Shown piece after piece: positions 24,298 to 36,336 of a stretch of DNA of 36,336 bases. A program made the position numbers and the translations under genes. Position 1 is the stretch's first letter, and each line of letters begins with the position of its first letter. The notes below the pieces were generated by a model. The model had not been told where the DNA came from. It saw only the letters and a list, made by a program, of their open reading frames with translations, and searched no databases. Source of the DNA: Candidatus Saccharimonadota bacterium (GTDB lineage Bacteria > Patescibacteriota > Saccharimonadia > Saccharimonadales > Saccharimonadaceae); contig JAFRLA010000022.1 of NCBI GenBank assembly GCA_017431465.1, positions 1 to 36,336 of the forward strand, read 5' to 3'.

Positions 24298-24374
24298 GGG
24301 TCGGTAGCTCAGCTGGTTAGAGCACGGGCCTTTTAAGCCCGGTGTCGAGGGTTCGAGCCCCTCCCGACTCACCA
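24298..24374 (+). tRNA. tRNA-Lys (anticodon UUU)
   Basis: 77 bases with encoded CCA (24372-24374). Acceptor GGGTCGG pairs with CCGACTC (one G-U). The anticodon stem CGGGC/GCCCG encloses CTTTTAA, giving UUU. T-loop TTCGAGC. Embedded between duplicated copies of its own 5' end and a three-hairpin array. Confidence 0.97.
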
Positions 24375-24378
24375 CGGA

Positions 24379-24440
24379 AAAATGCGCAAAGCGCATTTTC
24401 TGTTTGCCAAAGGCAAACAGAGGCAGGCAAAGCCTGCCTC
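24379..24440. repeat. Array of three contiguous hairpins with AAA loops
   Basis: Three back-to-back perfect palindromes of 21 bases: arms AAAATGCGC/GCGCATTTT (24379-24399), CTGTTTGCC/GGCAAACAG (24400-24420) and GAGGCAGGC/GCCTGCCTC (24420-24440, sharing one base with the second). Each has a 9-bp stem and the loop AAA, with no spacer, though the arm sequences are unrelated. The first has T runs on both strands and may serve as a bidirectional terminator between tRNA-Lys and the converging DUF308 gene. Confidence 0.85.
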
Positions 24441-24447
24441 ACCACCG

Positions 24448-33945: not shown

Positions 33946-34605
33946 ATGAAGTACAAATTTGTAAAAGATGACGCACGGTCATGGAAGGGTAGAACTATCC
34001 GTCGAATAGTCGCTATTCGGGATTTTGGTGATGTAAAGGAAGGCGATCTGGGTGGATACATAGAGAGCGAATCCAACCTGTCACAAGAAGATACCTGCTG
34101 GATCTACGATGAAGCCAGGGTCTATGGTGATGCCAGAGTCTGTGGTGATGCCAGAGTCTATAGTGATGCCAAAGTCTGTGGTCGCGCTGAAGTCCGTGGT
34201 AATGCCAAGGTCTATGGTGATGCCGAAATCTATGGTCGTGCTGAAGTCTATGGTAATGCCGAAGTTTATGGTCGTGCTGAAGTCTATGGTGACGCCAAAA
34301 TATATGGTCGTGCTGAAGTCTATGGTGACGCCAAAGTCTATGGTCGTGCTGAAGTCTGTGGTGATGCCGAAGTTTATGGTGATGCCGAAGTTTATGGTGA
34401 TACTGAAGTCTACGGTCATGCCAAAGTCTACGGTGACGCTGAAGTCTATGATGACGCCAAAATATATGGTCGTGCTGAAGTCTATGGTGACGCCAAAGTC
34501 TATGGTCCTGCCAAAGTCTATGGTGATGCTGAAGTCTATGGTGACGCCAAAGTCTGTGGTGGTGCCGAAGTCCATGGTGAAGCCATAATCCGTGGTGGCG
34601 CCTAA
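33946..34605 (+). CDS. Hexapeptide-repeat beta-solenoid protein, cut by an in-frame stop
   Basis: 219 aa to the first stop. The head (MKYKFVKDDARSWKGRTIRR, then DFGDVKEGDLGGYIESESNL and EDTCWIYDEA) matches a family widespread in gut bacteria and phages, followed by ~27 six-residue repeats of type VYGDAE/VYGRAE, predicted to form a beta-helix. The frame continues past the stop (TAA at 34603-34605) with 22 more codons (VYSRTEIYGNTKV, then a charged end, TAA at 34672-34674), still in repeat phase. One base change of GAA or AAA to TAA explains it. The protein is thus shortened by ~10% or read through. Start set by GGGAGG. Confidence 0.85.
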   Translation: MKYKFVKDDARSWKGRTIRRIVAIRDFGDVKEGDLGGYIESESNLSQEDTCWIYDEARVYGDARVCGDARVYSDAKVCGRAEVRGNAKVYGDAEIYGRAEVYGNAEVYGRAEVYGDAKIYGRAEVYGDAKVYGRAEVCGDAEVYGDAEVYGDTEVYGHAKVYGDAEVYDDAKIYGRAEVYGDAKVYGPAKVYGDAEVYGDAKVCGGAEVHGEAIIRGGA

Positions 34606-34650
34606 GTCTATAGTCGTACCGAAATCTATGGCAACACTAAAGTTGACGAC
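34111..34650 (+). repeat. 18-base repeats encoding the hexapeptide coils
   Basis: About 30 imperfect copies of an 18-base unit of the type GTCTATGGTGATGCCGAA, often alternating as 36-base pairs. The array extends ~45 bases past the TAA at 34603. Confidence 0.9.
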
Positions 34651-34689
34651 GACAAAAAAGCTTTTAGCCAGTAACCTACTACTTTTATA

Positions 34690-34713
34690 GCGCCCACTAG
34701 TGGGCGCATTTTT
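34690..34713 (+). terminator. Terminator of the beta-solenoid gene
   Basis: An 18-base perfect palindrome (arms GCGCCCACT and AGTGGGCGC) followed by ATTTTT. Its T tract also forms the left arm of the next hairpin (34707-34727). Confidence 0.82.
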
Positions 34714-34816
34714 GACAAACAAAAATGGCGGAAGCGCTCGCATAGCGGACAGCTTCCGCGTTTTTTCAAAGAAAAAACACCGGACCTCCGGTCCGGTCGC
34801 GAGTCGAAGACTCGTG
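34707..34816. repeat. Ladder of contiguous hairpins ending in tRNA-Ser(CGA)
   Basis: Five hairpins in a row: CATTTTTG/CAAAAATG (34707-34727), GCGGAAGC/GCTTCCGC (34728-34759), GTTTTTTC/GAAAAAAC (34760-34778, loop AAA), ACCGGACC/GGTCCGGT (34779-34797, loop TCC) and CGCGAGTC/GACTCGTG (34798-34816, loop GAA, one G-T). The last three are exactly 19 bases each, 8-bp stem plus 3-base loop, without spacers. The last overlaps the CCA of the tRNA. An 11-base copy of the tRNA 3' end, TGGCGGAAGCG, occurs at 34726-34736 and again in the tRNA (34815-34825). Confidence 0.85.
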
Positions 34817-34904
34817 GCGGAAGCGAGAGGATTCGAACCTCCGAGACGGTCACCCGCCCACACGATTTCGAGTCGTGCGCCTTCAACCACTCGGCCACGC
34901 TTCC
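34815..34904 (-). tRNA. tRNA-Ser (anticodon CGA)
   Basis: 90 bases with encoded CCA (34815-34817). Acceptor GGAAGCG/CGCTTCC, discriminator G; anticodon stem CACGA/TCGTG with loop CTCGAAA, anticodon CGA (reads UCG); long variable arm; T-loop TTCGAAT. The -10 box ends 7 bases before the first base, so the primary transcript probably begins at tRNA position 1 or -1. Confidence 0.96.
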
Positions 34905-34911
34905 ACCTCCG

Positions 34912-34920
34912 ATTATATCA
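34912..34920 (-). promoter_or_regulatory. tRNA-Ser(CGA) promoter without leader
   Basis: TGATATAAT read leftwards (TATAAT 34912-34917), 7 bases from the tRNA 5' end at 34904. Confidence 0.75.
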
Positions 34921-34962
34921 CAAAAACCCCGTCTCTGGAAACTCTCCCCCGACCACCACCTA

Positions 34963-34990
34963 GAAAAACAGGCCAACAGGCCTGTTTTTC
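34963..34990 (-). terminator. dnaK terminator
   Basis: 12-bp stem GAAAAACAGGCC/GGCCTGTTTTTC with a 4-base loop, lying 16 bases after the dnaK stop; T run on the minus strand. Confidence 0.9.
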
Positions 34991-35006
34991 CAACAAGAGC
35001 AGGGAA

Positions 35007-36336
35007 TTATTTATCTACGACTTCGCCTTCTACTGGCTCATCGTCAGATTTGTCATCACCAGATTTGCTCTCAGACCCCTCTGAATCACCCTTAGAGCCC
35101 TCTTTGCTTGCTTCCTGGTATAACTTAGCCCCAATCGGCATAATCTTCTCTGAAAGCTCCTTAGCGGCCTTCTCCAGCGCGTCCTTATCGTCGGCAGAAT
35201 CAGACAGAACCTTCTTCGCCTCAGAGACAGCTTCCTCAATAGTCTTCTTATCATCATCAGAAATCTTGTCTTTGTATTCCGAAGGCATCTTCTCTGCCTG
35301 ATAAATCGCGTTCTCGAGCTGATTTTTCGCATCAATCGCCTCGCGCTTCTTCTTATCTTCCTCAGCGTGTTCCTCCGCCTCGCGCGCAGCCTTCTCGATA
35401 TCCTCTTTGCTCATATTCCCCGAGTTCTGAATCGTGATCGACTGCTCTTTGCCAGTCCCCTTATCTTTCGCAGTCACGTTCAGAATACCGTTCGCATCTA
35501 GCGAGAAAGTAACTTCAATCTGCGGAATCCCGCGCGGCGCCGGTGCAATCCCATCAAGGATAAATCGCCCCAGCGACTTGTTATCAGAGGCCATTTCGCG
35601 CTCACCCTGAAGCACGTGAATCTCTACCGACGGCTGATTATCCGAAGCAGTCGAAAATACCTCAGATTTCGAAGTTGGAATCGTGGTATTGCGATCAATC
35701 AGCGGCGTTCTTACTCCGCCCATCGTCTCAATCCCCAGCGTCAAAGGTGTAACATCAAGCAGCAAAACGTCCTTGACATCACCCTGTAAAACGCCACCCT
35801 GGACCGCCGCACCAACCGCAACGACCTCATCTGGATTAACGCCCTGCATCGGATCTTTACCAAAGATCGACTTCACTTTCTCAACCACTGCTGGCATTCG
35901 GGTCATACCCCCGACCATCACAACTTCATCAATGTCGGACGCCTTCAGTTTCGCATCTTTTAGAGCTTTCTCAACCGGCTCTGCCAAACGATCGAGCAAT
36001 GGCTGGACCAACTCCTCTAGTTTCGCGCGGGTTAGAGTATATTCAAAATGCTTTGGACCATCCGCATCGGCGGTCAAAAACGGCAGGTTAATATCGGTCG
36101 AAGTCGCCGAAGACAGCTCTTTTTTCGCCTTTTCTGCCTCGTCCTTAATTCGCTGCATCGCCGTTGCGTCGCCTTTAATATCGACACCCGACTCTTTCTT
36201 AAACTCATCGCAGAGATAGTTCACGATGATATTATCGAAGTCCTCACCCCCAAGATGTGTATCACCATTCGTGGACTTTACTTCAAATACGCCGTCCCCA
36301 AGTTCAAGGATCGACACATCAAAAGTACCACCACCA
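35007..36336 (-). CDS. dnaK: Chaperone DnaK (5' end outside window)
   Basis: Hsp70 chaperone, 443 residues visible; the frame continues beyond the right edge ([20 protein letters not shown] is the usual internal ATPase segment). Visible: [54 protein letters not shown], the linker [20 protein letters not shown], the substrate-binding domain ([36 protein letters not shown]) and the helical lid. The acidic C-terminus ends [12 protein letters not shown]. Transcription ends at the terminator 16 bases downstream. Confidence 0.97.

What the first reader, a model, noticed from the sequence alone, without database searches (positions are those of the whole stretch)
34690..34825. Ladder of back-to-back hairpins of fixed geometry next to tRNA-Ser(CGA)
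After the terminator palindrome, hairpins follow one another. The last three occupy 34760-34778, 34779-34797 and 34798-34816: each is 19 bases, 8-bp stem and 3-base loop (AAA, TCC, GAA), with no spacer. Their arm sequences are unrelated (one is all A/T inside, one G/C-rich), so they are not copies of one repeat; only the shape is repeated. Chance formation of three abutting palindromes is very unlikely. Possible roles: a multi-stem RNA element, recombination or integration substrate, or stacked transcription barriers between the solenoid gene and the tRNA. I know of no described element of this form.
Basis: seen in the sequence. Interest (0 to 1): 0.82.

Follow-up and report, generated by a model that had tools for sequence, protein, structure and literature searches.

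The report
Hairpin cassette anchored on tRNA end
In a group of tiny gut bacteria (Saccharibacteria), many tRNA genes are followed by short inserted pieces of DNA that fold almost completely into abutting hairpins and end in a fresh copy of the tRNA's own tail; the reported hairpin ladder is one of them, and no described element of this form was found.

Summary
The ladder is real: three abutting 19-nt hairpins at 34760-34816. It is one case of a larger phenomenon. About 602 kb of this Saccharibacteria genome holds four runs of three abutting hairpins with stems of 7 bp or more, all directly at tRNA 3' ends; shuffles gave none. The ladder plus an 8-bp stem (the tRNA's own 3' strand paired with an inverted copy) is a spacer-free four-way junction. 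A covariance model found it at tRNA-Phe, -Ser and -Asp ends of other genus members, with 23 of 29 pairs changed on both sides. The junction lies in an 89-bp unit (34726-34814) ending in a second copy of the tRNA end, CGCTTCCGCCA. Relative G117 lacks the unit; two further occupied/empty pairs exist, one with a 1-kb gene-bearing insert and both flanks conserved. Units, mostly 50-120 bp, ending in the host tRNA's tail follow tRNAs of 18 amino acids in the genus, sometimes in tandem; one core motif, in arms matching each host tRNA, lies behind tRNAs in 20 of 22 database hits. Most likely these are site-specific insertion units; here hairpin 2 plus its T-tract also serves as the tRNA's terminator. 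The inserting enzyme is unknown.

The parts
34815..34904 (-). tRNA-Ser(CGA) gene with encoded CCA
   Evidence: ARAGORN; Rfam RF00005 58.7 bits
34815..34825 (-). T1: tRNA 3' end CGCTTCCGCCA; 34817-34824 is the 5' arm of the closing stem
34726..34814 (-). whole inserted unit (89 bp) between the tRNA and the ancestral trailer; absent in G117
34798..34816 (-). H1, first ladder hairpin in tRNA sense, loop TTC; outer two bases are in the tRNA CCA
34779..34797 (-). H2, G+C-rich hairpin followed by GTTTTTTC: intrinsic terminator of the tRNA
34760..34778 (.). H3, A/T hairpin; its arms are the T-run of H2 (minus strand) and the T-run of the opposite terminator (plus strand)
34752..34759 (-). T': inverted copy GCGGAAGC of the tRNA 3' end; pairs with T1 (four-way junction) or with T2 (hairpin)
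34737..34751 (-). apex between T' and T2 (TGTCCGCTATGCGAG)
34726..34736 (-). T2: second, direct copy of the tRNA 3' end CGCTTCCGCCA
34728..34767 (+). opposite-direction terminator-like site: T2/T' hairpin GCGGAAGC...GCTTCCGC then GTTTTTTC
   Evidence: the inner part is listed
34707..34727 (-). ancestral tRNA trailer hairpin CATTTTTGTTTGTCAAAAATG; in G117 its counterpart follows the tRNA directly
34690..34714 (+). terminator of the plus-strand beta-solenoid gene, conserved in G117
24379..24439 (+). second ladder: three abutting hairpins with AAA loops 3' of tRNA-Lys(TTT)
24298..24374 (+). tRNA-Lys(TTT)
24433..24444 (+). imperfect copy (10 of 12) of the tRNA-Lys 3' end closing the second ladder

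Best explanation
The ladder is the main part of an 89-bp structured insertion unit seated exactly between the CCA end of tRNA-Ser(CGA) and the tRNA's ancestral trailer. It belongs to a lineage-specific class of units that use a tRNA 3' end as their insertion site and end in a new direct copy of it. SHOWN by sequence: unit order T1 - hairpins - T' - apex - T2; a four-way junction with a covarying structure at several tRNAs; three occupied/empty comparisons; tandem arrays; tRNA-end copies at tRNAs of 18 amino acids in the genus. INFERRED, well supported: H1+H2+T-run terminates the tRNA transcript, so the insertion does not cost the tRNA its terminator, and the T2/T' hairpin plus T-run blocks transcription from the opposite side. 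INFERRED, weak: the units are inserted site-specifically at the tRNA end, probably as folded single-stranded DNA in which T' can pair with either T copy, somewhat as integron cassettes insert at attI, with the recombinase supplied in trans. Local template switching (T, inverted T', T) is the main alternative for how units arise and explains the tandem copies that also repeat the trailer.
For: All four strong triple runs in 602 kb lie at tRNA 3' ends. Model R1 over 174 genomes: of the eight hits of 42 bits or more, three are the model's own sequences and the five new ones are at tRNA-Phe (G097, G125, G122) and tRNA-Asp (G054), each starting 7 nt inside the tRNA 3' end, and at a tRNA-Ser-type end on a contig edge (G119); the next hit (36.7 bits, G119:C10) begins at a tRNA-Met 3' end. 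Ten loci folded singly give the same junction, z -5.9 to -9.6; tRNA-Lys gives the three hairpins with only a weak 3-bp closure. Covariation 23/29 pairs, 0/500 shuffles, collapse on sliding. Empty sites: G117 for this unit; G144 (1016 bp with a 258-aa ORF) versus G007, flanks 88% and 93% identical on both sides; G119 versus G060 at tRNA-Ser(TGA). Homologous unit with the same junction at tRNA-Ser of G133. tRNA-end copies within 300 nt: 5/42 tRNAs here, 8/30 at Ser/Arg loci of 22 genus genomes, 0 for reversed ends. GRWGCGTCCCAAGGGGCAAACG in 84,980 genomes: 22 hits, titled Saccharibacteria apart from one genome titled only 'uncultured bacterium'; 20 lie 19-107 nt behind a tRNA, followed by tRNA 3' sequence and preceded by its complement. 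Tandem units of 53/53, 72/72, 90/90 bp. Terminator scan.
Against: No enzyme was found. The only tyrosine recombinase in this genome is Xer-like and lies elsewhere; no IS200-type transposase in 39 of 40 relatives. G117 shares only the tRNA and its 3' side with the window, not the 5' side, so loss there is possible. Many copies lack a clean T' (14 of 69 with 8 bp or more against 6% of control positions). 13 of 72 units repeat the trailer too, which suits local duplication better than insertion. 400 kb of G060 has none at 1 mismatch. In G101 the terminator part is kept while the rest has decayed, so only the terminator may matter to the cell.
Confidence: 0.62

Rival explanations
1. Two ordinary convergent intrinsic terminators placed back to back, between tRNA-Ser (minus) and the solenoid gene (plus); the A/T hairpin is just their two T-runs, and the rest is coincidence.
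For: H2+T-run and the plus-strand sites are terminator-like; the genes are convergent here, and at tRNA-Lys as well.
Against: Does not explain H1, the closing stem matching the tRNA, the second tRNA end, the same junction 3' of tRNA-Phe where a promoter and start codon in the same direction follow, the covariation of the closing stem or the empty site in G117.
Confidence: 0.15
2. Local replication error: snap-back template switching (tandem inversion duplication, T-T'-T) at palindromic trailers repeatedly copies the tRNA end inverted and direct; no mobile element is involved.
For: Order T, inverted T', T; 13 of 72 units repeat the trailer with 17/20 identity or more; inverted triplication at short inverted repeats is a known outcome (PMC4689423).
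Against: In the window and in G144 and G119 the sequence between T copies is not a copy of the flank; a constant core is found inside arms matching many different tRNAs; some inserts carry genes.
Confidence: 0.25
3. Remnants of tRNA-targeted integrative elements (prophages, islands): T copies are att sites left after deletion of the element body.
For: Direct repeats of tRNA 3' ends; gene-bearing segments between copies; a phage-like beta-solenoid gene next door.
Against: No integrase in the inserts examined; the inserts are fairly uniform in size (mostly 50-120 bp), self-complementary and structurally conserved, unlike random deletion remnants; tRNAs of 18 amino acids used.
Confidence: 0.2
4. 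A selected RNA structure for tRNA 3' processing or stability, acting in the read-through pre-tRNA.
For: Covariation compatible with RNA; H1 abuts or includes CCA.
Against: The terminator in H2 should stop the RNA before H3's second arm and T' are made; the closing stem would unfold the acceptor stem; absent from most tRNAs and from G117.
Confidence: 0.12

Closest known systems
Integrative elements and genomic islands inserted at tRNA 3' ends
   Same: Direct copy of the tRNA 3' end on both sides; empty site in relatives; tRNA left intact
   Different: Units mostly 50-120 bp without integrase, folded over nearly their whole length, sometimes tandem, at tRNAs of 18 amino acids, with an inverted tRNA copy inside
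Integron cassette arrays (attI/attC; PMC4792948)
   Same: Tandem small cassettes, each ending in a hairpin whose 3' arm carries the insertion-site sequence; attC is conserved in palindromic structure rather than sequence and acts as folded single strand
   Different: The anchor is a tRNA gene; no IntI; no attC core tested; most units carry no gene
REP/BIME palindromic repeats with RAYT transposases
   Same: High-copy short hairpin repeats between genes (CGTCCCAAGGGG, up to 20 copies per genome)
   Different: No Y1 transposase in 39 of 40 genomes; arms differ by host tRNA; ladder stems share no sequence
Double-hairpin and repetitive hairpin-forming elements of mitochondrial genomes (PMC2800124)
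   Same: Adjacent hairpins in variable intergenic positions
   Different: Those are sequence families; here three hairpins are closed by a tRNA end into a four-way junction
Tandem inversion duplications / inverted triplications (PMC4689423)
   Same: T - inverted T - T order with short hairpin junctions
   Different: Scale of 10-100 bp, constant core motifs, non-copied insert sequence
[quoted passage not shown]
   Same: Short palindrome at a fixed place behind many tRNAs
   Different: A single conserved sequence, one hairpin, no tRNA-end copy reported

Membership tests
Intrinsic transcription terminator | G+C-rich hairpin followed directly by a T-run, on the tRNA strand | tested here: met
   34797-34779, 8 bp with 6 G-C pairs, then GTTTTTTC; six terminator-like sites in 34000-35100 against 1.0 in shuffles
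tRNA-targeted integrative element | direct repeat of the tRNA 3' end bounding the insert | tested here: met
   CGCTTCCGCCA at 34815-34825 and 34726-34736
tRNA-targeted integrative element | empty site in relatives | tested here: met
   G117 (3' side only), G144/G007 (both sides), G119/G060
tRNA-targeted integrative element | integrase encoded by the element | tested here: not met
   89 bp without a gene; the single PF00589 protein in the genome is Xer-like and on another contig
Integron cassette array | integron integrase IntI in the genome | tested here: not met
   best integron-integrase score 129.7 bits against a cut-off of 265 (TIGR02249)
Integron cassette array | attC site with AAC crossover triplet and L/R boxes | not tested
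   units end in an imperfect hairpin but no attC model was available
REP/RAYT | Y1 (IS200-like) transposase in genomes with the repeat | tested here: not met
   PF01797 absent from 39 of 40 genomes, including those with 15-20 core copies
Rfam RNA families | match to a described RNA family over the ladder | tested here: not met
   only tRNA reaches the gathering score
Conserved structured element | compensatory changes across homologues | tested here: met
   23/29 pairs with changes on both sides, 95% of cells paired, 0/500 shuffles (alignment fitted to the model)
Tandem inversion duplication | the sequence between T copies is an inverted or direct copy of local sequence | tested here: inconclusive
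   T' is an inverted copy and 13/72 units repeat the trailer, but the window's unit and the gene-bearing inserts are not copied from the flank
Casposon/CRISPR-type insertion | Cas1 integrase | not tested
   no search was made for Cas1

The most novel reading that the evidence does not exclude
A new class of mobile DNA: miniature cassettes that insert at the 3' end of almost any tRNA, copy the host tRNA's tail in direct and inverted form to build arms around a fixed core or a hairpin ladder, form a four-way junction as single strands, bring their own tRNA terminator, and build gene-carrying arrays with the tRNA as anchor, driven by an unidentified enzyme acting in trans.
Probability: 0.35. Interest if true: 0.92.

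Novelty: new variant of a known kind. Interest (0 to 1): 0.8.

Why it matters
tRNA 3' ends are the classic landing sites of mobile DNA, but the known elements are kilobases long and carry an integrase. Here streamlined episymbiont genomes carry units of mostly 50-120 bp whose arms match whatever tRNA they sit behind. That calls for either an unknown insertion machinery or a hitherto unseen, frequent replication error at tRNA genes; both are testable. The units also give a natural series of evolved four-way junctions with near-complete base pairing, and occasional gene cargo suggests a cassette system for gene gain in organisms with few known mobile elements.

Tried and rejected
RAYT/REP: no Y1 transposase. 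Known RNA family: none. Phage or plasmid carriage: no similar DNA in the phage or plasmid collections; the 14-mer hits in viral contigs come from a pattern too short to exclude chance and were not used. A MAFFT alignment of the Pro ladder with the others failed, so R1 was built from three trimmed sequences. A MAFFT-only covariation count on Phe orthologues was dropped because the structure string did not fit the alignment. Tandem tRNA pseudogene: T' copies the 3' strand and discriminator, not the 5' strand, so rejected. The full T-T'-T anatomy was not found at every copy, so it is not claimed as universal.

Full report
CHECK. In tRNA sense (minus strand) the order after the CCA of tRNA-Ser(CGA) is H1 CACGAGTC-TTC-GACTCGCG, H2 ACCGGACC-GGA-GGTCCGGT, H3 GTTTTTTC-TTT-GAAAAAAC, each 19 nt, no spacer. 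H1's second pair is A.C on this strand, and its outer bases belong to the CCA. Shuffles of the window never give three abutting hairpins with stems of 8; the window has two such runs, the other 3' of tRNA-Lys at 24379. In 405 kb of the genome there are four runs with stems of 7 or more, at tRNA-Ser, -Lys, -Phe and -Pro, all directly 3' of the tRNA, and 20 shuffles give none; 602 kb adds none of this strength. If position were random, four of four within 100 nt 3' of a tRNA would be about 3e-9.

ANATOMY. One search's minimum-energy fold pairs the tRNA's own GCTTCCGC with GCGGAAGC beyond H3. Taken alone, the 73 nt fold as DNA into a four-way junction with no free base at the junction except the mismatched end of H1 (z -6.5). 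tRNA-Phe (GAGCCA closing with TGGCTC) and tRNA-Pro (CGAGAACG with CGTTCTCG, both strands downstream of the tRNA) do the same; tRNA-Lys has the three hairpins but only a weak 3-bp closure. In Ser and Phe the closing strand is the tRNA 3' end itself. After the inverted copy T' the Ser unit has a short apex and then a second direct copy of the tRNA end, CGCTTCCGCCA, at 34736-34726. T' can therefore pair either with the tRNA end or with the second copy. On the plus strand, T2/T' plus the T-run of H3 is terminator-like; on the minus strand, H2 plus T-run is. The A/T hairpin is thus two facing T-runs.

RELATIVES. The genus is gut and rumen Saccharibacteria, judging from the record titles of genomes sharing the core motif. 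Orthologous tRNA-Ser loci vary greatly 3' of the tRNA. G117 shares the solenoid gene, its terminator and the trailer, but there they abut the tRNA (84% identity over 131 nt up to the tRNA end; 78% over 924 nt): the 89-bp unit is missing. G133 has a homologous unit with the same junction but altered stems, placed after another unit that also ends in CGCTTCCGCCA. A covariance model from G000 Ser, G133 Ser and G000 Phe, run over 174 genomes, found high-scoring junctions at tRNA-Phe of G097, G125 and G122, at tRNA-Asp of G054 (and, weaker, G053), each starting 7 nt inside the tRNA 3' end, and at a tRNA-Ser-like end on a contig edge of G119. The hit at 36.7 bits begins at a tRNA-Met 3' end of G119. 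Hits below about 31 bits are mixed and, apart from G053, were not used. Ten loci folded one by one give the same topology. On the model-fitted alignment of nine, 23 of 29 pairs have changes on both sides and 95% of cells pair; sliding the partners collapses the score. The fit to the model inflates this, but the single-sequence folds do not depend on it.

THE WIDER CLASS. Copies of a tRNA's last 11 nt (1 mismatch or fewer) 8-300 nt downstream occur for 5 of 42 tRNAs here, 0 of 20 in 400 kb of G060, and 8 of 30 at Ser/Arg loci of 22 genus genomes; reversed ends give 0 everywhere. Among all fetched loci, 72 units were seen behind tRNAs of 18 amino acids, mostly 48-122 bp (this pool is biased because many loci were fetched for a motif). 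Tandem arrays have identical or near-identical lengths: 53/53 Met, 72/72 Ala, 90/90 Pro, 90/89 Met. The motif CGTCCCAAGGGG recurs in many of these hairpin tips and in other hairpin repeats: 84 of 174 genus genomes, up to 20 copies, rare outside the genus. A longer form, GRWGCGTCCCAAGGGGCAAACG, gave 22 hits in 84,980 species genomes; 20 lie 19-107 nt behind a tRNA (Asp, Leu, Met, Pro, Trp, His, Thr, Gly), with flanking arms complementary to each other and taken from that tRNA's 3' part. The window's own Ser unit has another apex, so it shares the plan and not this core.

INSERTION OR DUPLICATION. G144 carries 1016 bp (a 258-aa ORF without known family, then a 76-bp unit) between the tRNA-Ser CCA and a trailer that follows the tRNA directly in G007, with both flanks aligned at 88% and 93%. 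G119 has a 79-bp unit at tRNA-Ser(TGA) where G060 has none. These and G117 look like insertions bounded by tRNA-end copies. Against that, 13 of 72 units also repeat the trailer, as local template switching would. I keep insertion as the better general account and template switching as the main rival; both may act.

ENZYME. This genome has one tyrosine recombinase, Xer-like, lying next to a reverse transcriptase on another contig. IS200-type transposases are absent. Nothing similar was found in phage or plasmid collections. The enzyme is therefore unknown.

LITERATURE. Full-text searches found no paper joining Saccharibacteria, tRNA gene, hairpin and palindromic, nor integron, tRNA gene, attachment site and Patescibacteria. 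The library holds open-licence papers only, so absence is weak evidence. Integron attC sites are the closest functional parallel: palindromic structure conserved rather than sequence, used as folded single strands (PMC4792948). Inverted triplication is the closest mutational parallel (PMC4689423).

LIMITS.

Noticed in passing
window 24379-24444: A second ladder, three abutting hairpins all with AAA loops, directly 3' of tRNA-Lys(TTT), ending in an imperfect copy of the tRNA end.
   Followed up: partly
L151 (G000:C4), 2-910 and 1456-2265: A reverse transcriptase (RVT_1) lies beside the genome's only tyrosine recombinase; its motifs (NLTSQ, YVDD) resemble diversity-generating retroelement enzymes (judged by eye).
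   Followed up: no
L158, L161 (G051, G054): The CGTCCCAAGGGG hairpin sits beside a CIRCE-like element, with direct and inverted copies of the CIRCE arm around it, the same plan as at tRNAs.
   Followed up: no
L103 14212, L112 13935, L165 and other loci: CGTCCCAAGGGG also forms the tip of long hairpin repeats away from tRNAs, whose outer arms differ by locus.
   Followed up: no
L252 4242-5181 (G144), L268 1451-2208 (G098), L262 1244-1553 (G051): Gene-bearing segments between tRNA-end copies encode proteins of 258, 125 and 59 aa without Pfam or PHROG match.
   Followed up: partly
window 33946-34605: Beta-solenoid repeat protein (YdcK repeats, bactofilin-like end) with strong matches to phage families PHROG 5070 and 7964, next to the tRNA insertion site.
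   Followed up: partly
L257 223-440 (G088): At tRNA-Gly(TCC) one unit carries the core motif in the opposite orientation.
   Followed up: no
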